A DNA stretch of 64,000 nucleotides from the NCBI RefSeq assembly GCF_022647885.1, contig NZ_JALCLM010000001.1, positions 434,001-498,000 of the forward strand, written 5' to 3'. The notes beneath the pieces were generated by a model. The model had not been told where the DNA came from. It ran no database searches and was given only the letters and a program-made list of their open reading frames with translations. The position numbers and the translations under genes are program-made. Numbering within the stretch: the stretch's first letter is position 1; each line of letters starts with the position of its first letter. This document shows, piece after piece, positions 32,330-43,219 of this stretch. This DNA comes from Bifidobacterium sp. GTDB taxonomy: Bacteria; Actinomycetota; Actinomycetes; Actinomycetales; Bifidobacteriaceae.

Positions 32330-33394
32330 TCACTGTTGGGCAAAGAGTGAGCCAGGAAAGTGCTGAGAAAGTAGAGCAGTGCGGTCCTGAAAAATTACTG
32401 CACATTCGAAAGCGAAGGCACGGCTCAAGATGACCGGGTCACAAACAAATAAAGCAGTTGAAAGGCCGTCGGCCCAAGCCGTTGGATAGTTCGTCGTGTT
32501 ATGAATAGCGGTAGGTGTTGCCTCTGAAGAATTGTCGATAGCGACCCAAGTGGCAGCCACATCGTTTGCTGGCATACCGTCAATGGCATTAAGCAGGTGG
32601 TGCATAGTGATGAAACTTTTTTCGTGCGTGGAATGTTGAGTCTGCTGTTGGTCAAGGACTAGTGGCCATTGTCTGCGGCTGGGGGCTGATGCGCATAACG
32701 ATCCGTTTTGAATTTCAGCCATTCCGACTGCATCCTCGTCATTGCTGGGATCTTCTAGTGCAATGCGTATGGGGTTGCCACATTCCATACGCAAATCGCC
32801 ACCAGCATCTATGAGAACATATCCCTTCATCTGCGCGATGGCGCTACTCAGCAAATCAACTAGAAACCCTTTTCCGACTGCTCCGAAATCAAGCTGGAGC
32901 GCGCGATGAGTGATTAGTGTTGTGCCATGCCGCGTAACGGCTTCATTCCACTGTGGTCTGCCATGAATCGCTCCCACTGTTTGCTTCACATTGGCCGATG
33001 CATGAAAGTTGATATCTGCTCCATAGCCTAATTGTGTTAAATCAGCACCTACCAGTGGATCGATTTTCCCCTCTGTAACGGCAAAGAGGCGGTCATATAT
33101 CTCAAATAGTGGATGGAGGTAGTCCGGAAAATCGAAACTGCCACCGTGACTTGCATTCGACATTGCAGTGACCAGAGAATCGTGGCGAAAGCGAGAAAGG
33201 ACGGTTTCGTAATTATCAATTAGTGTTTGAAGCTCGGACTCAAGTTGAGTGTCAATCTCGTCCTCGGTGTGCACCACAATCCCTGTTCCTAGCGCTTCAG
33301 GGAATGCAATGACATGGTTGAGATTGCCGATAACAGCGTTATTTGCTGCTTCCTTCGCATTACGTTGATGCTGCATGTGAAAAACTCTACTCAT
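32330..33394 (-). CDS. apbE: FAD:protein FMN transferase (ApbE family)
   Basis: The protein has 354 residues. ApbE landmarks are LDFGAVGKGFLVD (equivalent of LDLGGIAKGYAVD) at about residues 180-192 and the C-terminal AWADGLSTALFV (TADALATAL equivalent). The enzyme moves FMN from FAD onto a Ser/Thr in proteins bearing the GA[ST]xT motif outside the membrane. No clear signal peptide is seen, so its location is uncertain; some Gram-positive ApbE proteins are lipoproteins. It is divergent from the iron operon, which ends with an FMN-binding lipoprotein carrying the target motif, so the two are likely partners. Confidence 0.88.
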   Translation of the reverse strand: MSRVFHMQHQRNAKEAANNAVIGNLNHVIAFPEALGTGIVVHTEDEIDTQLESELQTLIDNYETVLSRFRHDSLVTAMSNASHGGSFDFPDYLHPLFEIYDRLFAVTEGKIDPLVGADLTQLGYGADINFHASANVKQTVGAIHGRPQWNEAVTRHGTTLITHRALQLDFGAVGKGFLVDLLSSAIAQMKGYVLIDAGGDLRMECGNPIRIALEDPSNDEDAVGMAEIQNGSLCASAPSRRQWPLVLDQQQTQHSTHEKSFITMHHLLNAIDGMPANDVAATWVAIDNSSEATPTAIHNTTNYPTAWADGLSTALFVCDPVILSRAFAFECAVIFQDRTALLSQHFPGSLFAQQ

Positions 33395-33581
33395 GAATAT
33401 TGAGTTGTGTAAGTGATTTTTCGTGAATCGCTAACGTGGTCGTGACGTATAAAATATGCTCCTTACACCACAAATCTGAGAAAAACAAGACTGCACTTTA
33501 GGGAAATTTTCAGCTAGTTTTGCTTACTGGTGATTTTCCCCACACTGTTTTCTCTCAGGAGAATACGGAAAGAGCCTCAGC

Positions 33582-35285
33582 ATGCAATTACAAATACGTT
33601 CAATCATGAAGCGTTTGGTAGGACTGTTCGCTATGGTATTCGCTACCTGCGCAGTGTTGTCAGTATTGCAACCTCAAACTCTTGCGTATGCAGCTGATGC
33701 TGAGCAGTATGCAACATGGAGTGATATTGCCACAGCAGCAAATGAGCAGCTCACCGCAGCGGAGCACAGTTATTCGGATGGTGACACTGCAGGGGCATCT
33801 TCAACGTTCAGTGCAAGCTATAACAGCATTTATGTTGCCAGTAATTTTGCTAAAGCAGTGAACGACATACTCGGCACGGAACAACAGCAACATTTACAAC
33901 AACAGTTCCAATCAATAGAGCAGTCTTCATACACCGCAGGCAATGCGCAGAGTATTAATCAGCAAGTATTAACTCTTCAAGCAGCCCTCACTGCAAGCGC
34001 CCAACAACTTGATGCCAATACCACACTTGCCGATCCCAAAACTTATGCTACTGCGTTAGATAAGCAGATTGAAGAACAGCGTAAACAACTTGAAGCTGCC
34101 AAGAAAAACAAAAATACCGGCAGGGGAGAGCGCAGCTGGTCACAAGTCGCCGATGAAATGAACAAGATTCTTGACAAGTCATACCAAGCTTCATCTTCAG
34201 GAGATGGTCGTAAAGGTTCTGATCTGGTCAATGAAGCCTATTATCAGTATTACGAGAAGCTGGGCTTCGAAAAAACAGTGATGAACGCTATCAGCGGTAG
34301 ACGCGTTTCTCAAGTCGAATACCAATTCAAAGAAACGCGCTTGGCAATGGTTCAGGGCGAGTCGAACGCTCATGTGAAGACTCTGGTGACTGATCTTCAA
34401 TCTATGCTCACTGCAGATGCAACAACTCTAGATGGTGGTGCTGCGGGAAATGTCAATCCTATGACCGCATTCTTCACCAGTGCGTTTGGACAAGCTTTTG
34501 TGGTGTTGTTGCGTGAGGGTCTTGAGGCGCTGCTGGTGGTGGCAGCGATTATCGCTTACTTGGTCAAAGCTGGGCATAGGGATAAACTGCGCTACATTTA
34601 CTGGGGCGTAGCTGCTGGATTACTTGGTAGTGCTTTGATGGCCTTGCTGTTTACCTTGGTCTTTAGCTCTGCTGGAGCACATCAGGAACTGCTGGAAGGC
34701 ATTACTGCCCTTATAGCGATGGTGATGCTGCTCTATACCAGCAATTGGATGCTCTCCAAATCTTCAGTCGAAACCTGGAATACCTATATCAAGGAGAAAA
34801 CAGTCGCCGCGGTTTCGCAGGGGAGTGTGATCTCTTTGGCATTGCTCTCATTCCTAGCGGTGTTCCGTGAGGGTGCTGAGACTGTGATGTTCTATCAGGC
34901 TATATTCACTATGGCACCAAGTGGAGGACGAGAGATTTGGTTGGGATTCGCCGCCGCAGCTGTGGTCTTGGCGATACTCTTCCTGCTGATTCGATATACC
35001 TCAGTCAAGATTCCTATACGCCCGTTCTTCATGATTACCAGCGCTCTGATGGCTATTATGGTCGTGATTTTTGCCGGAGGTGGAGTGCATGCCCTCATAG
35101 AAGGTGACATCGTTCCTGCTACTTATCTGCCGTCAGTACCAACCAACGATTGGATTGGTTTATATCCATATGCGCAGACGGTTATTGCCCAGATAATCGC
35201 TCTCATAGTAGTGATTGCACTGTTCACTGTGTCTGTCATCCGACAGCGGCGTGCTCGAGCCAAGCTTGCGACGACCTCCAAATAA
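33582..35285 (+). CDS. ftr1: Iron permease of the FTR1 family with N-terminal extracytoplasmic domain
   Basis: The protein has 567 residues. A signal peptide (about residues 1-38, cleavage near AYAAD) is followed by an alpha-helical extracytoplasmic domain of about 270 residues. The seven-helix FTR1 membrane domain then carries both iron-binding motifs, REGLE at 311-315 and REGAE at 429-433. It takes up ferric or ferrous iron, in partnership with P19 in related loci. It heads the five- to seven-gene iron operon. The promoter lies in 33395-33581 between it and divergent apbE; no convincing iron-regulator box was identified there. Confidence 0.92.
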   Translation: MQLQIRSIMKRLVGLFAMVFATCAVLSVLQPQTLAYAADAEQYATWSDIATAANEQLTAAEHSYSDGDTAGASSTFSASYNSIYVASNFAKAVNDILGTEQQQHLQQQFQSIEQSSYTAGNAQSINQQVLTLQAALTASAQQLDANTTLADPKTYATALDKQIEEQRKQLEAAKKNKNTGRGERSWSQVADEMNKILDKSYQASSSGDGRKGSDLVNEAYYQYYEKLGFEKTVMNAISGRRVSQVEYQFKETRLAMVQGESNAHVKTLVTDLQSMLTADATTLDGGAAGNVNPMTAFFTSAFGQAFVVLLREGLEALLVVAAIIAYLVKAGHRDKLRYIYWGVAAGLLGSALMALLFTLVFSSAGAHQELLEGITALIAMVMLLYTSNWMLSKSSVETWNTYIKEKTVAAVSQGSVISLALLSFLAVFREGAETVMFYQAIFTMAPSGGREIWLGFAAAAVVLAILFLLIRYTSVKIPIRPFFMITSALMAIMVVIFAGGGVHALIEGDIVPATYLPSVPTNDWIGLYPYAQTVIAQIIALIVVIALFTVSVIRQRRARAKLATTSK

Positions 35286-35301
35286 TACTTGCTATTGCTT
35301 A

Positions 35302-35319
35302 CCCCCCCCCCCAAAAAAA
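35302..35319 (+). repeat. C11-A7 homopolymer tract before p19
   Basis: Eleven C residues (35302-35312) are followed by seven A residues, between the ftr1 stop and the p19 ribosome site. Tracts of this length slip readily and are otherwise absent from the window. It is upstream of the start, so slippage would change leader length or transcription rather than the protein. Confidence 0.85.
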
Positions 35320-35366
35320 GGATTTCAACATCCTTACTGTTACCAGGAAACAAAAGGAAAGAGAAC

Positions 35367-35984
35367 ATGACAAAGAAACATCTCATGGCTGTCGCGGCGT
35401 TGGTACTATCCGGCGCACTAGCCCTGTCCGGCTGCGGGAGTTCTAGCAGCTCTGCAGACAACACCAACTCCTCTGATTCTTCTACAGCTTCGTCGTCAAG
35501 CGACTCAGGCGCTGGCTTCGAAGAAGTGCCAATCGGTGATGACCAACAGAAAAGTCCTCTGAATATTGGCACGGTATTTTTCCAGCCTGTTGATATGGAA
35601 CCAGCGGGCATGGGATTAGCTGCAGCTGATGCCAACATGCATCTAGAAGCTGACATCCATGCTTTGGCTGATAACAACCTTGGATATGCTAAAGGTGAGT
35701 TTGTTCCTGATTTGACTGTGAACTACACCATCACAGATGAAAATGATGCCAGCAATACACAATCAGGGACTTTCATGCAAATGAATGCTTCTGACGGTCC
35801 TCACTACGGTGCAAATATCAAATTGGAAAAAGCTGGAACATACAAGCTTACTTACAAGATTGATTCCCCAGAGAAGAAGGGCTGGATGATTCATACTGAT
35901 CCAGAAACTGGTGTCAAAGGCAAGTTCTGGACCGATCCCATCACCGTCTCATGGGACTGGGATTACACCCCTCATGAATGGTAG
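35367..35984 (+). CDS. p19: Iron-associated lipoprotein of the P19/Tp34 family
   Basis: The protein has 205 residues. A lipoprotein signal ends at LSGC (Cys23), then comes a Ser-rich linker and a beta-sandwich. GTVFFQPVDMEPAGMGLAAA, the His/Met-rich MHLEADIHAL and DGPHYGANIKLEKAGTYKL are the P19 metal-site segments. P19 proteins bind Cu and Fe and work with FTR1 permeases in iron uptake. The start at 35367 is set by AAAGGAAAGAG; a frame open to 35289 crosses the C-tract and is not used. It is followed by a hairpin. Confidence 0.9.
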   Translation: MTKKHLMAVAALVLSGALALSGCGSSSSSADNTNSSDSSTASSSSDSGAGFEEVPIGDDQQKSPLNIGTVFFQPVDMEPAGMGLAAADANMHLEADIHALADNNLGYAKGEFVPDLTVNYTITDENDASNTQSGTFMQMNASDGPHYGANIKLEKAGTYKLTYKIDSPEKKGWMIHTDPETGVKGKFWTDPITVSWDWDYTPHEW

Positions 35985-35993
35985 AGCCGTGAG

Positions 35994-36016
35994 CAAACAG
36001 CACTGTGTGCTGTTTG
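35994..36016 (+). terminator. Hairpin after p19
   Basis: CAAACAGCAC and GTGCTGTTTG pair perfectly around a TGT loop directly after the p19 stop. It probably lowers read-through into the downstream genes. Confidence 0.55.
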
Positions 36017-36020
36017 TAGG

Positions 36021-36294
36021 CTCGTGAGCGCGACTTATCGAGCGCGAAGTACATGTTGGGTCGGCCCTTCGGGGCCGTCCGTTATTGCAGGACGAAGCGT
36101 GAACACGTTGTTTCGAGTGCGCAGTGCGCTTTTCGTAGCTGAGCTGTTAAGTGGTGGTAAGCCCAGCGGGCTTGCCATAGGATCGGTGAGCAGCCTACGG
36201 CTGTGAAGTTGCCCGCTGGTTTGGCAGTTATCGTCCGCTTGTATGTTTTTTACCCTTCCCCATTTGTGCGTAAGCGCATAACATTGGGAAGGGT
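36021..36294. ncRNA. Hairpin-dense region, candidate structured RNA
   Basis: The region between p19 and the DUF2318 gene holds no convincing protein gene. It contains a series of compact hairpins: CGGCCC-TTCG-GGGCCG (36062-36077), GCGC-AGT-GCGC (36119-36129), AAGCCC-AGC-GGGCTT (36159-36173), CAGCC-TAC-GGCTG (36191-36203) and finally ACCCTTCCC / GGGAAGGGT with an inner TGCG-TAAG-CGCA (36252-36294). The density and UUCG-type loop suggest a folded transcript, possibly an operon leader or processing region. No known RNA family was recognised. Confidence 0.35.
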
Positions 36295-36347
36295 TCATTT
36301 GTGGGTCACAGGGATGCTATGCCCACCAGAATAGGGAGCTGGTCTGG

Positions 36348-37628
36348 ATGCTTGAACAGTTCGTGACCGTAATGCCTGGAACGCTTGGTGCGGCATTGAT
36401 CGTGATGAGTGTCAGTGTGATGCTTGGCGCGGGTGAAGGCAAGAGCAAACCTCGCAGTTCCAGATGGAGATTGTACGGCCTAGGTATTGGTTGTTTAGCT
36501 GCAGTCATTTTTGCCGCATTACGAGCGACTGCTGTTATTAATCAGCGCACTGTGGTCAACTATCCCACATTGATATGTTGTGTGCTCGCAGATATGGCTC
36601 TGGCAGTTGTGCTGTTTGGTGCTAGGAAAACAGTATCTGAACGTGCTGAGCATCCACGCCGTTTGGATCTTTCCAATGCGATTGCTGCGGTTGCTATCGC
36701 TTTGATAGTGTTCCGTGCGCTGCCGGACGTAATACTTGAGCTGACAATTTTTGTTGAGCCAGGTGACCCAGTGTTCACTTCAGCAATGTTGCTGCGTGCT
36801 TTGGGCTTCATTATGGGTTTGGCGGCTTCGATTATTGTGGCTTGCATAGTTCGAAGTTTGCGTGCTTGTGTACATGTGCGATTTTTTGACGCTGCTGCGC
36901 TGCTGCTACTGGCTTTGATATTCATACAGCATGTCACGGCATTGCTTACAGTGATGCAGACTACGGGAGATGTGTTTCTGCGGGGCACGTCTTTCCGTTT
37001 ATTGGCGTGGCTCATTAATCACGCAACTCCTTTGATTATTGCTCAAATTGTGGTGTTTCTACTTCCTGCAATTGCATCCATCGTCGCAGGATTCAGGATG
37101 CCTGTAGCTGGTGAAAACACAGCAATAGTCAGGCAGCACACTGCTTTGAGAAGACGTGCGAAGGCTGCCGGCGTTTGGACAATTCTCGCTGTGATTGGCG
37201 TAACGGTGGCTTTGACTTACGGCGTTGCACAGACCAATCAGGTTCCTGTGCTTTCGCCTCCTGAGTCGTATGCTCTCTCTTCAAATAAAAGCGTGGCAAC
37301 CATCAAATTCTCTCAGCTCGCTGATGGACATTTGCACCGCTTTGAATACAAGGCTAAAGACGGAACCGTGATGCGTTTCATCATCATCAAAAAGAATGGT
37401 GGTGCTTATGGGGTTGGCCTTGATGCTTGCGACAACTGTGGTGATGCAGGGTATTACGAGAAAGACGGGAAAATCATCTGCAAGAGATGCGATGTGGCTA
37501 TTAATCTTGCCACCATCGGATTCGCGGGTGGGTGTAATCCGATTCCTTTCCCATACCAAGCTGGCAACGGCAGCATTACTATCCAGACTTCAGATCTTGA
37601 TGCATTATCAAGTCACTTTAAGAGCTGA
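36348..37628 (+). CDS. DUF2318 Fe-S membrane protein of the iron locus
   Basis: The protein has 426 residues. About eight transmembrane helices span residues 1-300, then comes a DUF2318 domain outside. The metal-binding set is ACDNCGDAGYYEKDG, CKRCDVAI and GGCNPIPFPY, matching the family pattern of two CxxC pairs plus GGCNP. In Campylobacter and E. coli, homologous genes sit between P19 and the ABC components of the same iron system. GGGAG nine bases upstream supports the start. It is likely an electron-transfer or metal-handling component. Confidence 0.88.
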   Translation: MLEQFVTVMPGTLGAALIVMSVSVMLGAGEGKSKPRSSRWRLYGLGIGCLAAVIFAALRATAVINQRTVVNYPTLICCVLADMALAVVLFGARKTVSERAEHPRRLDLSNAIAAVAIALIVFRALPDVILELTIFVEPGDPVFTSAMLLRALGFIMGLAASIIVACIVRSLRACVHVRFFDAAALLLLALIFIQHVTALLTVMQTTGDVFLRGTSFRLLAWLINHATPLIIAQIVVFLLPAIASIVAGFRMPVAGENTAIVRQHTALRRRAKAAGVWTILAVIGVTVALTYGVAQTNQVPVLSPPESYALSSNKSVATIKFSQLADGHLHRFEYKAKDGTVMRFIIIKKNGGAYGVGLDACDNCGDAGYYEKDGKIICKRCDVAINLATIGFAGGCNPIPFPYQAGNGSITIQTSDLDALSSHFKS

Positions 37629-37642
37629 TGGGAGGCAATGAC

Positions 37643-38986
37643 ATGTTTCTCAATCGTATGGTGTTACGTTCACTAAGCAGACAGTTGAGTAGACGCGTCC
37701 TTATCGCGGTGAGTGTAGGACTTTCGGCATGCGTGAGCGTTGCGATGTTGGGAGTGGTTTTCGATGTCGGTGACAAACTGAATGCTGAACTCTCAACCTA
37801 TGGTTCTAATATCATGGTTCAGCCGAAATCAGATGCAGTCGTTTCTGACTTATATGCAGCAGGCGATTCAGATTCTTCGGGAAGCGCTATGAATTCCGAC
37901 CCTACTGCCTTCATTAAGGAGTCGGATATTGCGAAAATCAAGACGATTTTTTGGGCATACAACATCACGGATTTTGCTCCTCAGCTCAACACTCATGCAA
38001 CGATTGGTGTTAATTGCAAGTCTTCAGAGGGGTCTTCGCAAGCGTCGTGTACGTCACGCTCGGTTCCGCTAGTTGGCACATGGTTTAACAAGCGTGTTAC
38101 CGCATCCACCGGTGAATCGTCAACGGTTGGAGTGCGTGGCATGCGTTCGTGGTGGAAGCTTCAAGGATCGTGGGTAAAGGATGACACCAACCAGGCGATG
38201 ATCGGTTCCAATCTCGCTAAGGAGCTCGCCGCAACAGTTGGAGACACCTTAACTGTCGCCAAAGGCAAGAAATCTCAACAACTACAAATCGTTGGGATAT
38301 ATGACTCTGGCGATGATGACAATGATGCCGTGTACCTTTCCTCATCTGTGGCTCAAGATCTTGCCGAATTGCCTGACCAGGTCGATCGGGTCGAGGTCAA
38401 GGCTTTAACCACCCCTGAGAATGATCTGGCTCGCAAGGCTGCTCGCAACCCAGGAGCGCTCTCTCAGGAGGATTGGGAAACGTGGTACTGCACGGCTTAC
38501 CCGTCCTCAATTGCTTATCAGATTGAAGAGGTAATTCCTGGCTCTGTTGCTAAGCAGGTTCGCCAAATTGCAGCATTGCAAGGTGATGTGATGAAGAAAA
38601 CACAGGCTGTGATGATCCTGATGACTGCTCTGAGTTTGCTTGCTGCAGCTATCGCGGTAGCGAACCTTATGGCAGCGGCTATATCAGAGCGTTCATCTGA
38701 ATTTGCTCTGTTGAAAGCTATTGGCGCTACTGACGGATCAGTGAGCAGATTAGTGCTGTTGGAAACAGCCTCCGTGAGCATAGTTGGCGCTGTGGTGGGA
38801 GCAGGATTGGGTTCATTAATGGCTCAGGTCGTCGGGCATGTGGTGTTTGGATCGGGCATCACTATGCGACCGATGGTGTTCGTTCTAGTGTTTGTGCTGC
38901 TTGCGGTGACTATTCTGGCAGCTTCATTATCGGGTATTCGTTCAATTCTCAGGCTGAGACCTGCGGAGGTGCTGCATGGCAGGTAA
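37643..38986 (+). CDS. FtsX/MacB-type ABC permease of the iron locus (1)
   Basis: The protein has 447 residues. It has one N-terminal helix, an extracytoplasmic domain of about 270 residues containing a Cys pair near residue 130, and three C-terminal FtsX helices ending LRPAEVLHGR. GGGAGG upstream places the start at 37643 rather than 37628. It overlaps the next permease by 11 bases. In homologous Fet loci, two such permeases plus an ATPase are present. Confidence 0.9.
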   Translation: MFLNRMVLRSLSRQLSRRVLIAVSVGLSACVSVAMLGVVFDVGDKLNAELSTYGSNIMVQPKSDAVVSDLYAAGDSDSSGSAMNSDPTAFIKESDIAKIKTIFWAYNITDFAPQLNTHATIGVNCKSSEGSSQASCTSRSVPLVGTWFNKRVTASTGESSTVGVRGMRSWWKLQGSWVKDDTNQAMIGSNLAKELAATVGDTLTVAKGKKSQQLQIVGIYDSGDDDNDAVYLSSSVAQDLAELPDQVDRVEVKALTTPENDLARKAARNPGALSQEDWETWYCTAYPSSIAYQIEEVIPGSVAKQVRQIAALQGDVMKKTQAVMILMTALSLLAAAIAVANLMAAAISERSSEFALLKAIGATDGSVSRLVLLETASVSIVGAVVGAGLGSLMAQVVGHVVFGSGITMRPMVFVLVFVLLAVTILAASLSGIRSILRLRPAEVLHGR

Positions 38987-40265
38987 ATCGATGCGGAATA
39001 AGCGTTTCGGGATGGGGACTATGACCAACGGACGGATGTTCGTGGTTATGATTCTTGGCGCAGTATTTAGACGGCGGTCTAGGGCTCTGATGGCAGTTAT
39101 CGCATCCACTGTAGGTGCTGCCACATTATTTTGTTTGGCTGCGGTGTGCATTGCCGTTCCGCAGCAAATGAGCGAAGATATGCGCTCATATGGAGCAAAT
39201 TTGGTGGTAACTGCGGTGGAAAAGAATGCTTCAGCCAAATCTGGCATTGCTGACGATATGGTTGCACACACCACGGAAATGATAGAGGCCAAAGCTCCGA
39301 CCAAACTGGCGACGTACCGTTACGACACCGTAAGGATTAATGCTTCATCGTATATGATGGCCGGCATTGATCCAGCTGCTGTAAAAGCAATTAATCATCA
39401 TTGGAGTGTTCAGGGTGCTTGGCCGTCGCAGGGTAGTGTGCTGGTTGGTACTGATATTGCGACAGCTCTCGGTCTAAAAGTTGGTGGTGATATCACCATT
39501 GCGTATCGTTCTGCCGACAATGCGGGCGGTACTGCTGCTTCGGGTTCTACGCAAACTACTCCATCCGCTACTAGTTCAGCGACCGCTTCGGATGGCCGCG
39601 TTTCCACTGACATCATGGAAGAAGGTGGTGTGAGCTTTAGAGTTGCGGGAATTGTTGACACCGGTGGTTCTGAGGATCAGATGGTGTATGCGACGAGGTC
39701 GGATCTTGATAAACTCGCTGCTTCAACACGTGGGGCTGATGTGCTTGAGTATTCAGTTGATGCTTCAGGAAGTGCCTTAGATGCTATTGCACAGAGCATC
39801 AATGCTATGAGCAGTATGGGGGTCAAAGCACAAACCGTTACGAAGATCACTGCATCCAATGCAACAATCATTACCATGTTGCAAACTCTGTTTTGGCTAG
39901 TTTCTGCGGTGGTTTTGGTATTGACATTCGTCGGTGTGGGCACAACAATGACATCTATTGTCTCGCAACGTCGTAATGAAATCGGTTTACGAAAAGCATT
40001 AGGCGCTCCCTCGTCTCGTGTAGGCACAGAGTTTTATGCAGAATCGGCACTGTACGGTCTGCTCGGTGGTTTGTTGGGTATCGTTCTGGGATATTGGTTG
40101 GCGTGGATACTGTGCGCTACAGTTTTTGAGCACGATTTGCAGATGAACTGGCTGCTGGCGCTCGCTGCGGTTCTTTCTAGCATGCTCATAGCGGTGATTG
40201 CGACCATACGTCCGGTTCGCAGAGCGTCCCGAATTGATCCCGCTGTCGTTCTGAGAGAAGAATAA
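38976..40265 (+). CDS. FtsX/MacB-type ABC permease of the iron locus (2)
   Basis: The protein has 429 residues with the same architecture as its neighbour: an N-terminal helix near residues 25-55, an extracytoplasmic domain with a low-complexity Ser/Thr/Ala insert (about 185-210), and a three-helix FtsX domain with the cytoplasmic QRRNEIGLRKALGAPSS loop. GGAGGT lies five bases upstream. The two permeases probably form a heterodimer. Confidence 0.9.
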   Translation: MAGKSMRNKRFGMGTMTNGRMFVVMILGAVFRRRSRALMAVIASTVGAATLFCLAAVCIAVPQQMSEDMRSYGANLVVTAVEKNASAKSGIADDMVAHTTEMIEAKAPTKLATYRYDTVRINASSYMMAGIDPAAVKAINHHWSVQGAWPSQGSVLVGTDIATALGLKVGGDITIAYRSADNAGGTAASGSTQTTPSATSSATASDGRVSTDIMEEGGVSFRVAGIVDTGGSEDQMVYATRSDLDKLAASTRGADVLEYSVDASGSALDAIAQSINAMSSMGVKAQTVTKITASNATIITMLQTLFWLVSAVVLVLTFVGVGTTMTSIVSQRRNEIGLRKALGAPSSRVGTEFYAESALYGLLGGLLGIVLGYWLAWILCATVFEHDLQMNWLLALAAVLSSMLIAVIATIRPVRRASRIDPAVVLREE

Positions 40266-40279
40266 GACGAGAAAAGCTG

Positions 40280-40389
40280 TTTGTGTAGGGATTTATCGGT
40301 GGTCCGCCACAGAGGTTAGCTAAGAATGGCGGAATTCCAACGGTCTAGAAAAACGATAGTGTGGGTCGGCGTGAAAATCCCTACACAAA
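40280..40389. repeat. Dispersed inverted-end element, copy B (inside the iron operon)
   Basis: The ends are a 15-bp perfect inverted repeat, TTTGTGTAGGGATTT (40280-40294) and its complement (40375-40389), with central AATGGCGGAATT. It sits between the second permease and the ATPase gene, where it separates genes that should be co-transcribed. Its arm TCCGCCA can also pair with the centre TGGCGGA. See copy A for the family description. Confidence 0.8.
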
Positions 40390-40416
40390 AGATGTGGAGT
40401 TAAGAAAGAGGCGAAT

Positions 40417-41241
40417 ATGTTGCTCGAATTGGATCATGTGTCGAAGATTTATGGCGATCTACACGCAGTTGACGATCTGAGTCTGTCTGTGGGCGAGGGT
40501 GAGTGGCTTGCTATCGTCGGTTCCTCTGGCTCGGGGAAAACAACCTTGATGAACATCATTGGATGTATGGACACTCCCAGCGAAGGCTCCGTAACGCTTG
40601 AAGGAAGGCAGCTCAACGATTTGAATGCTACCCAACTTGCTGATGTGCGAAAAAATGTGATTGGTCTAGTATTTCAAAAGTTTTATCTGGTGCCGCATCT
40701 CACCGCCGTTGAGAATGTGATGGTTGCGCAGTATTACCATTCCGTTGTCGATGAGGAACAAGCAATGGAAAGCCTTCGCAAGGTAGGACTTGAAGAGCGT
40801 GCGCATCACTTGCCTGGGCAATTGTCTGGTGGTGAACAACAGCGGGTTTGTATAGCTCGAGCTTTGATTAATTGTCCAAAACTGATCCTGGCAGACGAAC
40901 CTACCGGTAACCTCGACGGTACCAATGAGAAAATTGTGTTGGATCTCTTCAAACAGCTTCACCAACAAGGAACTACTATCATCGTGGTGACCCATGATGC
41001 TTTGGTGGCCTCTTGTGCACAACGCGAAATTATGTTGAACCATGGAGTGCTCGTTGGCGAACAGTGGAATGACAACAGCGCGCAACAGAGCTATATGGAA
41101 GCTGGCGGAAAACCTACTCTGGTGAGATCTGATCAGGCAATAAGCGGTGGATCGAACCAAGCGAGTGGAGCTGCATCTGATCTGCCTGTAGGATTCATTG
41201 ACCCTACTAAATCTTCAAAAACTGACGGTACAAGCATCTGA
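40417..41241 (+). CDS. ABC ATPase of the iron locus
   Basis: The protein has 274 residues. Walker A is GSSGSGKTT, the signature is LSGGEQQR, Walker B is LILADEP and the switch His is in VVTHD. It has a polar C-terminal extension of about 50 residues rich in Ser and Gly. It powers the two FtsX-type permeases upstream. AAGAGG precedes the ATG. Confidence 0.93.
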
Positions 41242-41308
41242 AATCCCATTATTGGAGACATACATACTAGGGATGACGCATGCGGCTGGATCAAGAAAGG
41301 ATGTCAGC

Positions 41309-41827
41309 GTGAGGGCACAGAGGAAAACTATTACAGCGACATCGCTTGCCGCACTGGGGCTAGTAGCTGCAAGTACTTTGCTTGCAGGCTGCGGTGAATC
41401 TTCTGCAATTCCTATGGATGATGCTTACGCCGGTTCGGGAGATGAATCCAGTAGTTCACCTGCTAATACCGATTCAAGTTCATCTTCAGATTCATCTGCG
41501 AGTAGCTCAGCTGGTTCCAAGAAGGATACTGGCACATACAAAGATGGTAGTTATGCCATCAAAGGTGAGTATGGTCCTGTTGGTGAGGACACCATTGATG
41601 TGACCATTACTGTTGCTGCCGGTCATATAAGCGATGTACAAGTTGTTGGGCACCCTTTCACCACGATTTCTAAAAACCATCAGAATGCATTTATTAAAGC
41701 AATTCCAGGTGTGGTTGAGGGCAAAGCTCTGAAAGATTTGAAAGTCGATAAGGTAGCAGGAGCGAGTTGGACAAGCGAAGCCTTTAACAAAGCACTTGAG
41801 GTGGCCCGCCAAGAAGCTTCCGAGTAA
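41309..41827 (+). CDS. FMN-binding lipoprotein, probable ApbE substrate
   Basis: The protein has 172 residues. The signal peptide ends at the lipobox LLAGC (Cys28); a Ser/Asp linker (about residues 38-75) follows, then a single FMN-binding domain (about 80-170). The flavinylation motif is in VAGASWTS, with Thr155 the predicted covalent FMN site. GTG at 41309 is used because AAAGG precedes it; a frame open to 41198 overlaps the ATPase gene. Position and motif argue that the ApbE encoded at the other end of the locus attaches FMN, making a surface electron carrier for iron reduction. Confidence 0.88.
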   Translation: MRAQRKTITATSLAALGLVAASTLLAGCGESSAIPMDDAYAGSGDESSSSPANTDSSSSSDSSASSSAGSKKDTGTYKDGSYAIKGEYGPVGEDTIDVTITVAAGHISDVQVVGHPFTTISKNHQNAFIKAIPGVVEGKALKDLKVDKVAGASWTSEAFNKALEVARQEASE

Positions 41828-41929: not shown

Positions 41930-43219
41930 CTATCTGTTCCACCATGGACGGAGAGGATAGGTGGTGGTTCCTGTTTCGGGGTCTGGTTTGATGCAGAGGA
42001 ACTGGTGAATCTGGATGGTGTTCAACTCGAAGTTGAATCGCGATCCTGCCATATAGACACCCCACAGTCGGGCTTTGGGCTCGCCTACTAGTTTAACTGC
42101 GTCATCCCAGCGGTCTTGCAGATTCTCATTCCAATGTTTGAGCGTAATTGCGTAGTGCTGCCTGAGATTCTCTTGATTAATAACTTCGAATCCCACATTG
42201 TTAATGGTGACTTCAATTTCTCCTGGGCTGGCTAGCTCGCCGTCAGGGAAAATGTATCGGTCGATAAAGCCACCAGCGCGCTTGCCTTGGAAGCTGTTGC
42301 ACCTAGTAATTTGATGATTGAGCAGCATGCCACCTGGGCGCAGCTTATCGAGCATCTCCTTGAAATAAGCGTGATAATGCTTGTGTCCAACGTGCTCCAT
42401 CATGCCGATAGAGCAGATGCCATCGAAACCAGATTCTGGGACATCTCGATAATCCATCAAGCGAACCTCAGCGAGGTCTTCAAGACCTTCGCGTGCTATC
42501 CATTCAGTGCCCCAATCAACCTGTTCTTGTGAAAGGGTGACGCCTATTACGCGAATACCACGCTTTGCTGCTGCGATTTCCATCGATCCCCAACCGCAAC
42601 CGATGTCAAGGAGCGAATCGCCCTCTTTGAGGTTCAGTTTGTCAAGTACCATATTGAGTTTGTGGTCTTGTGCTTTTTCAAGAGTCGCATCTGCTGTTGG
42701 GAAGCAGGCGCAGGTGTAAGTCATTGACGGTCCAAGAAACATCGCATAGAAGTCGTTACTTTGATCGTAGTGATAGCTGACGGTCGCCGCATCACCCTTT
42801 TTGGTGTGTGGCATGATTCCTTCAGCCATGCGCTGAGCCAAAGATGGAAGCTCTATTTCCGGTGGCTTGGGTTTTCTTATGCCATGCGACAGAATGGTTG
42901 CACTGAGTTTCGCCAACTCGGTTTTCTTCGGTTTTCTGGTGTACTCCTTCAGCTCCATCAACTGCTTAAACACACTGTATGGGTTGCCGGGTTCAAGTTC
43001 TGGCGATGCGATATCACCTTGAAGATATGCGCGTGCAAGGCCTAAATCGTTCGGACATTCTGCAATGTAATAGACGGCGCGTGAATTGCGAATTTCCAAA
43101 TTGAGTGGAGCGTCTTTGCTGCCGAAACTCGATCCGTCAAAGGCACTGACATGAATTGGAGCATCCTGGTTGAAAAAGACCCCCACCATGTCTGCCACGG
43201 TCATTGTTGATATAGCCAT
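41930..43219 (-). CDS. cfa: Cyclopropane-fatty-acid synthase family methyltransferase
   Basis: The protein has 429 residues. A SAM-binding fold with LLDIGCGWGSMEIAA is followed by GVTLSQEQVDW and the C-terminal RFNFELNTIQIHQFLC segment of CFA synthases. It transfers a methylene group to double bonds of membrane lipid acyl chains, altering membrane fluidity and acid tolerance. The length fits the family. An internal ATG five codons in is an alternative start. Confidence 0.92.
   Translation of the reverse strand: MAISTMTVADMVGVFFNQDAPIHVSAFDGSSFGSKDAPLNLEIRNSRAVYYIAECPNDLGLARAYLQGDIASPELEPGNPYSVFKQLMELKEYTRKPKKTELAKLSATILSHGIRKPKPPEIELPSLAQRMAEGIMPHTKKGDAATVSYHYDQSNDFYAMFLGPSMTYTCACFPTADATLEKAQDHKLNMVLDKLNLKEGDSLLDIGCGWGSMEIAAAKRGIRVIGVTLSQEQVDWGTEWIAREGLEDLAEVRLMDYRDVPESGFDGICSIGMMEHVGHKHYHAYFKEMLDKLRPGGMLLNHQITRCNSFQGKRAGGFIDRYIFPDGELASPGEIEVTINNVGFEVINQENLRQHYAITLKHWNENLQDRWDDAVKLVGEPKARLWGVYMAGSRFNFELNTIQIHQFLCIKPDPETGTTTYPLRPWWNR

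What the first reader, a model, noticed from the sequence alone, without database searches (positions are those of the whole stretch)
32330..41827. Iron uptake locus of the Ftr1-P19 type with its own covalent flavoprotein and ApbE
The gene order ftr1, p19, DUF2318, two FtsX-type permeases and an ATPase matches the iron loci of Campylobacter (cj1658-cj1663) and E. coli (fet genes), where thioredoxin-like proteins complete the set. Here the operon ends instead with an FMN-binding lipoprotein carrying a GA[ST]xT site (Thr155), and a divergent apbE at the other end supplies the flavin transferase. The inference is a surface flavin-dependent ferric reduction step in place of the thioredoxin-like proteins, passing iron to P19/Ftr1 with DUF2318 as electron carrier. 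It would be an unusual design for a Gram-positive fermenter.
Basis: partly seen in the sequence, partly recalled or inferred. Interest (0 to 1): 0.8.

Follow-up and report, generated by a model that had tools for sequence, protein, structure and literature searches.

The report
Known bifidobacterial iron-uptake operon with flavoprotein
This is a Bifidobacterium copy of a known iron-uptake gene cluster whose last gene makes a surface protein that probably carries a flavin; the design is already described, but the enzyme that should attach the flavin seems to stay inside the cell, which is puzzling and testable.

Summary
The genes are as described: divergent apbE, then ftr1, P19, FtrD/DUF2318, two FtsX permeases, an ATPase and an FMN_bind lipoprotein. 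This is the bfeUO-sifABCDE locus of bifidobacteria. B. breve mutants in it are chelator-sensitive (PMC5449479), and two papers already say that Gram-positive clusters carry an FMN-binding protein where Gram-negative ones carry a thioredoxin (PMC6083913, PMC8238504). It is not an unusual design.

What I add: (1) SifE and ApbE go together: of 107 P19-positive Bifidobacteriaceae genomes 92 have both, 13 neither, 2 ApbE only, though a tree holding 37 of them needs only two losses. (2) The published B. breve apbE mutant has the chelator profile of sif mutants. (4) None of 68 ApbEs tested has both marks of a lipoprotein leader; 92 of 93 SifEs have them. (5) No usual membrane electron donor was found over cut-off in 18 sampled genomes, and FtrD has no invariant His or Cys in its membrane part. 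The flavin-for-thioredoxin idea is supported but published; the electron path and the side of flavin attachment are open.

The parts
32330..33394 (-). apbE, FAD:protein FMN transferase without visible export signal; K175, G176, D180, H266, D309, T313 conserved (91-100% of 76 rows)
   Evidence: Pfam PF02424 E 3.9e-25; conservation in 76 aligned rows; phmmer to solved ApbE structures, best E 2.4e-9; no signal peptide or lipobox
33481..33498 (+). match (4 of 18 mismatches) to the iron-responsive operator AAAATCAAGACTGTTGTT, in the apbE-ftr1 intergenic region; weak on its own
   Evidence: motif from Lanigan 2017; below the 3-mismatch scan, which instead found one 3-mismatch site at 37934-37951 inside sifB; sequence; as good in 0 of 20 shuffles and 4 of 100; same site in the B. 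psychraerophilum locus L095; 56 of 78 ftr1 upstream regions have 5 or fewer mismatches against 1 of 117 control regions
33582..35285 (+). ftr1 (bfeU, fetM): FTR1-family iron permease
   Evidence: PF03239 E 2.4e-27; TIGR00145 E 3.9e-37, below that model's cut-off
35361..35984 (+). P19 (bfeO, fetP) iron-binding lipoprotein
   Evidence: PF10634 E 8.8e-63; Cys25, His94, Glu96, His100, His148 invariant in nine aligned sequences
36348..37628 (+). FtrD-like membrane protein (sifA, fetA, DUF2318): helical membrane part and C-terminal Cys-rich domain (C361, C364, C378, C381, C396, H328, H330)
   Evidence: PF10080 E 1.6e-31; invariant columns; AlphaFold2 model pLDDT 87.6
37628..38986 (+). FtsX/MacB-type permease (sifB, fetB)
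   Evidence: PF02687, PF12704
38976..40265 (+). FtsX-type permease (sifC, fetC)
   Evidence: PF02687
40417..41241 (+). ABC ATPase (sifD, fetD), of the LolD/MacB/FtsE type
   Evidence: PF00005; NCBIfam hits shown are all below their cut-offs
41273..41827 (+). FMN_bind lipoprotein (sifE); lipobox Cys40, predicted FMN acceptor Ser165 in VDKVAGASWT
   Evidence: PF04205; alignment of 26 sequences; best fold matches are FMN_bind structures 3o6u, 8p2a, 8p2b (prob 0.99-1.00, E 1.2e-3 to 8.1e-2; none reached 1e-3, and IscU-type folds follow from E 3e-2)

Best explanation
The locus is a Bifidobacterium member of the fetMP-fetABCD / bfeUO-sifABCDE iron-uptake family in its Gram-positive, flavin form. Inferred working: P19 binds iron outside the membrane and Ftr1 carries it in; FtrD and the SifBCD ABC machine support a redox step; SifE, a lipoprotein with one FMN bound to Ser165, is the electron carrier that stands where thioredoxin-like FetE/FetF stand in Campylobacter. 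The ApbE of the divergent gene attaches the FMN. Shown by sequence: the parts, the motif, the lipobox, the co-occurrence and two co-losses. Shown by others in B. breve: iron-regulated transcription and chelator sensitivity of mutants. Inferred: that SifE carries covalent FMN, that this ApbE puts it there, and the direction of electron flow. Not known: where the electrons come from.
For: Domains and order. Motif AGASWT in 87 of 96 SifE-like frames and AGASKT in 6 (the six Actinomyces loci); the 3 without it are second-locus proteins (several species are counted twice). SifE model matches FMN_bind structures best. ApbE motif residues conserved. P19-positive genomes: 92 both, 13 neither, 2 ApbE only (G041, where BLAST does find the FMN gene, and G130, a cluster that looks decayed); FMN gene within 6.5 kb of P19 in 91 of 92. 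Two co-losses on an FtrD tree (37 of the 107 genomes, all 13 without SifE among them). Actinomyces: apbE divergent beside ftr1 and an FMN gene in 6 of 6 loci. Published: the B. breve apbE::Tn5 mutant is impaired only by ferrous chelators, sif mutants by dipyridyl and phenanthroline but not ciclopirox, apbC by ferrous and ferric chelators.
Against: Ferric reduction has not been shown; sif mutants grew normally with the ferric chelator. The Campylobacter thioredoxins may act as oxidases. 13 of 107 P19-positive genomes do without SifE and ApbE, so the flavin step is dispensable. Detached apbE genes lack the iron operator (0 of 35 upstream regions with 5 or fewer mismatches; the set also holds second-type and other ApbEs), and even beside ftr1 only 13 of 41 have one in the stretch scanned. 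No known membrane electron donor over cut-off in 18 sampled genomes for five families. The motif has Ala where S/T is usual and Ser as acceptor; Thr-to-Ser changes lower flavinylation. ApbE shows no export signal.
Confidence: 0.75

Rival explanations
1. SifE passes electrons the other way or serves another purpose: it is an oxidant or electron sink that keeps P19/FtrD cysteines or iron oxidised for Ftr1 (as FetE/FetF were suggested to act as oxidases), not a ferric reductase.
For: FetE/FetF data point to oxidase action; sif mutants are insensitive to the ferric chelator ciclopirox; no cytosol-to-surface electron donor was found over cut-off.
Against: Characterised FMN_bind systems mostly carry electrons outward, though Meheust 2021 notes that the direction could be reversed. 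Bifidobacteria are anaerobes (recalled).
Confidence: 0.2
2. The ApbE acts on another protein and its link to the iron locus is indirect, e.g. Fe-S cluster repair as Lanigan proposed for B. breve apbE.
For: apbE is often away from the cluster (of 94: 46 within 8 kb, 9 at 8-12 kb, 19 at 12-60 kb, 2 beyond, 18 on another contig or not in the list) and lacks the operator when detached; ApbE shows no export signal while SifE does; ApbE was linked to Fe-S phenotypes in Salmonella.
Confidence: 0.15
3. SifE binds no covalent flavin; the AGASW motif has degenerated.
For: Ala replaces the usual S/T and Ser replaces Thr in the motif.
Against: Gly-Ala-Ser is conserved in SifE across Bifidobacteriaceae and Actinomyces, and ApbE is retained with its motif residues.
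Confidence: 0.1

Closest known systems
bfeUO-sifABCDE of Bifidobacterium breve UCC2003 (Lanigan 2017, PMC5449479)
   Same: Same seven genes in the same order: ftr1, P19, FtrD, two FtsX permeases, ATPase, FMN-binding protein; related operator upstream of ftr1
   Different: The apbE found in that screen (Bbr_1825) lies elsewhere by its locus tag; here apbE is divergent beside ftr1. In the sections read the paper does not connect ApbE with SifE
FMN-type P19 clusters of Actinobacteria, Firmicutes, Spirochaetes, Synergistetes (Liu 2018, PMC6083913; Meheust 2021, PMC8238504)
   Same: [quoted passage not shown] redox support of iron uptake proposed
   Different: In the passages I read, neither discusses where the cognate ApbE is located or the Ser acceptor
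fetMP-fetABCDEF of Campylobacter jejuni (PMC10783030)
   Same: First six genes
   Different: Ends with two thioredoxin-like genes instead of the FMN lipoprotein
Listeria extracellular electron transfer, PplA/FmnB (abstract in a search listing, and review passages)
   Same: Protein of the cell envelope flavinylated by an ApbE-type enzyme in a Gram-positive
   Different: FmnB flavinylates outside the cytosol with exported flavin; the ApbE here shows no export signal

Membership tests
P19/Ftr1 (fet, bfe-sif) iron-uptake cluster | FTR1 permease and P19 protein adjacent | tested here: met
   PF03239 and PF10634 over cut-off, 75 bp apart
P19/Ftr1 (fet, bfe-sif) iron-uptake cluster | DUF2318 protein, two permeases and ATPase in that order | tested here: met
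   six genes in order in 78 of 80 named loci
P19/Ftr1 (fet, bfe-sif) iron-uptake cluster | Iron uptake phenotype | not testable with these tools
   Chelator phenotypes shown by others for the B. breve operon
FMN-type sub-group of these clusters | FMN_bind lipoprotein as seventh gene, no thioredoxin gene in the operon | tested here: met
   PF04205 over cut-off, lipobox
ApbE flavin transferase | ApbE domain with conserved FAD, Mg and catalytic residues | tested here: met
   that H266 is the general base and D309/T313 bind Mg is by analogy and recalled (a general-base His is named)
ApbE flavin transferase, extracytosolic type | Signal peptide or lipobox | tested here: not met
   rule-based test, not SignalP
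ApbE-flavinylated FMN_bind proteins | Motif DxxS/T-G-A-S/T | tested here: inconclusive
   DKVAGAS fits six of seven positions; Ala stands at the S/T position; acceptor would be Ser165
ApbE-flavinylated FMN_bind proteins | Covalent FMN | not testable with these tools
   needs mass spectrometry or in-gel fluorescence

The most novel reading that the evidence does not exclude
In the P19-type iron clusters of Bifidobacteriaceae, Actinomyces and some Clostridiales, an ApbE without export signal flavinylates the SifE preprotein inside the cell, at a short motif that need not be folded, and the flavin-bearing chain is then exported as a lipoprotein. This would be a flavinylate-then-export route that needs no FAD outside the cell.
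Probability: 0.35. Interest if true: 0.65.

Novelty: new member of a known kind. Interest (0 to 1): 0.38.

Why it matters
The operon is a studied iron-uptake locus of gut bifidobacteria, and its redox step is poorly understood. The comparison ties the flavin transferase to the operon (shared loss, matching published mutant behaviour) and offers a new reading of the B. breve apbE mutant, which was filed under Fe-S cluster repair. The mismatch between an exported substrate and an enzyme without visible export signal makes a simple question testable: on which side of the membrane is the flavin attached?

Tried and rejected
Thioredoxin as a replacement in clusters without SifE: none recognised next to the 13 clusters in the ORF listing (by eye) or among 10 chosen flanking proteins scanned with Pfam, of which 3 had no hit. 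Known membrane electron donors in 18 chosen genomes that have P19 and FMN_bind: Ferric_reduct, DsbD, Fer4_5 (NapH), NqrB/RnfD and PepSY_TM gave 0 of 18 over cut-off, with sub-threshold hits in 5, 1, 0, 0 and 6; DUF4405 0 of 16 in another set, the 13 genomes without SifE plus three. The second flavin locus as donor: FMN_bind hits away from P19 number 27, of which 24, in 22 of 151 genomes, have an ApbE within 1 kb (counted from the listing), so it is not general. FtrD fold: no confident Foldseek match, best E 0.056; profile search in solved structures gave one weak hit, E 0.027. An FtrD difference between clusters with and without SifE: no discriminating column at the 90% rule used (18 against 99 rows). 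Regulation of detached apbE by the iron operator: rejected. Tat export of SifE: no consistent twin-arginine motif seen by eye, not counted. The Fisher p values are not used as evidence, because the genomes are related.

Limits: the leader test is a hydrophobicity and lipobox rule, not SignalP. In one search 13 of 81 ApbE-like frames were left out for low score (seven ApbEs of another type, three second-locus ones, L161, L172, and the fragment in L050); 33 of 120 P19 and 3 of 96 SifE-like frames were left out because an anchor motif was not found. No exported ApbE was run as positive control; SifE and P19 served instead. Species overlap between G-handle and named loci, so counts over loci are redundant. 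The control regions lie upstream of sifB, inside coding sequence, and come from more loci than the ftr1 set. In the tree L059 (G009) is a long, oddly composed branch.
Full report
Observation. The lipoprotein most likely starts at 41273 (184 aa) with lipobox Cys40. The window lies at 434,001-498,000 of a 2.34 Mb single-contig genome. The closest named P19 found is that of Bifidobacterium psychraerophilum (89% identity; records of the window's own genome may be left out there), so the host is a Bifidobacterium near that species; no tool named it.

Identity. In B. breve UCC2003 the same genes are called bfeUO and sifABCDE. Lanigan 2017 (PMC5449479; sections 15, 19 and 20 read, plus outline and passages) reports two iron-regulated transcription units, chelator-sensitive mutants, presence in 35 of 47 bifidobacterial species, and SifE as a predicted ferric reductase, absent from B. 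bohemicum and B. bombi. Liu 2018 (PMC6083913; passages) found the first six genes in the same order in 33 species, with B. kashiwanohense in its list, an FMN-binding protein as seventh gene in Actinobacteria, Firmicutes, Spirochaetes and Synergistetes, and a thioredoxin in most Proteobacteria, and proposed both as sources of reduction potential for ferric iron. Meheust 2021 (PMC8238504; passages) counted 260 P19 clusters with an FMN_bind gene, mostly Gram-positive.

In 151 Bifidobacteriaceae genomes, P19, ApbE and FMN_bind were found in 107, 98 and 93. Cross-table: all three 92; P19 alone 13; P19 and ApbE 2; ApbE alone 4; FMN_bind alone 1; none 39. The two P19+ApbE cases are G041, which does have the FMN gene by BLAST, and G130, whose ftr1 lies in three frames and whose downstream genes are missing; the FMN-only case, G077, has the FMN gene beside an ApbE fragment. 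The FMN gene is within 6.5 kb of P19 in 91 of 92 genomes; apbE is within 8 kb in 46 of 94. On an FtrD tree of 43 rows (37 of the P19-positive Bifidobacteriaceae, with all 13 that lack SifE, and 6 rows from outside) the absence of SifE and ApbE needs two changes, both forced by well-supported branches. So the independent evidence is two co-losses, not 107 genomes. Of 80 named loci 69 had SifE by profile; of the other 11, besides these five, L118 has it fused to sifD, L123 is cut by a contig end, and L161, L170, L172 and L174 have a divergent one. Lanigan gives a bumblebee source for B. bombi and B. bohemicum; the bee origin of the others is recalled. The 13 clusters keep the other six genes where seen, and no thioredoxin gene was recognised beside them.

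Published mutant data that fit. Lanigan's apbE::Tn5 mutant (Bbr_1825) was impaired only by ferrous chelators; sif mutants were impaired by dipyridyl and phenanthroline but not ciclopirox; apbC was impaired by ferrous and ferric chelators (table rows, seen without the column heads). The authors filed apbE under Fe-S repair. If Bbr_1825 is the ApbE of the P19 type, which I infer and did not test on the B. breve sequence, the simplest reading is that it flavinylates SifE.

SifE. The AlphaFold2 model (mean pLDDT 74.9 over the chain, about 95 over the domain) matches FMN_bind structures 3o6u, 8p2a and 8p2b best, at E 1.2e-3 or weaker. The flavinylation motif ends in the acceptor S/T directly after Gly-Ala (PMC12052999, passages). 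The motif reads AGASWT in 87 of 96 SifE-like frames and AGASKT in the six Actinomyces ones; the three without it are second-locus proteins. Four more distant lipoproteins, in three Clostridiales MAGs and one MAG labelled Bifidobacteriaceae, have GAT instead.

ApbE. Motif residues are conserved. In a rule-based leader test, 0 of 68 ApbEs had both a hydrophobic stretch and a lipobox (1 had the stretch, in an over-long frame; 2, from one species, had the box; 19 have no room for a leader), against 92 of 93 SifEs and 87 of 87 P19s. An earlier pass by genome coordinates agreed on the lipobox: none in 29 P19-type, 3 second-locus and 7 other ApbEs; five P19-type and one other ApbE exceeded its hydrophobicity line, which I read as the first strand of the domain in the P19-type cases; the other one (G021, second copy) may have a short hydrophobic start. 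In two MAG clusters, L161 and L172, an ApbE without a visible leader follows the FMN gene. In the passages seen, the review describes cytosolic ApbEs (Klebsiella, two eukaryotes) for intracellular substrates. Four literature searches did not turn up a leaderless ApbE serving an exported protein; their hits were seen as listings, apart from passages of the review.

Electron source. FtrD has invariant Cys and His only in its C-terminal domain; in the predicted membrane part His195 is 90% conserved and nothing else of that kind is. Its membrane part has no confident structural match, and the usual flavinylation-linked membrane modules were not found over cut-off in sampled genomes. The source of electrons, and even their direction, is open. 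Data against a simple ferric-reductase reading are the normal growth of sif mutants with the ferric chelator and the oxidase-like behaviour of the Campylobacter thioredoxins (PMC10783030, passages).

Regulation. The apbE-ftr1 intergenic region carries AAAAACAAGACTGCACTT at 33481-33498, four mismatches from the B. breve operator; 4 of 100 shuffles did as well, and a three-mismatch site inside sifB at 37934-37951 scores better. The case rests on conservation: upstream of ftr1, 56 of 78 loci have a match with five or fewer mismatches, against 1 of 117 control regions. Upstream of apbE such a match is seen in 13 of 41 adjacent genes and 0 of 35 detached or other-type ones, so co-regulation can hold only where the genes share the region.

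Verdict. The new, testable point is the location of flavin attachment.

Noticed in passing
L055:6746-9515 (own genome, 2.193 Mb): A second flavin locus: FMN_bind protein with an N-terminal hydrophobic stretch (SGAT motif), an ApbE without visible export signal, and a protein with a hydrophobic N-terminal part and FAD- and NAD-binding domains (PF08022, PF00175). 24 of 27 FMN_bind hits away from P19 lie within 1 kb of an ApbE.
   Followed up: partly
L118:14880-16661; L073:11788-13188: The ATPase (sifD) and the FMN lipoprotein (sifE) share one open reading frame in Pseudoscardovia suis and in G033: fusion, or overlap with an internal start.
   Followed up: no
L108, L110, L112, L119, L124: Named P19 clusters without SifE belong to Bombiscardovia coagulans, B. 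aemilianum, B. commune, B. bombi and strain ESL0784, which I recall as bee-associated; the loss may track that habitat.
   Followed up: partly
L133, L135, L141, L143, L148, L165: Six Actinomyces loci carry the same arrangement with divergent apbE, although P19 was nearly absent from a draw of 296 genomes of the class: exchange between the two families is possible.
   Followed up: no
   Followed up: no
window 37934-37951: A three-mismatch match to the iron operator inside the sifB coding sequence; 9 of 100 shuffled windows have at least one such match, so probably chance.
   Followed up: no
window 41930-43219 (-): A cyclopropane-fatty-acid synthase-type gene (PF02353) converges on sifE.
   Followed up: no
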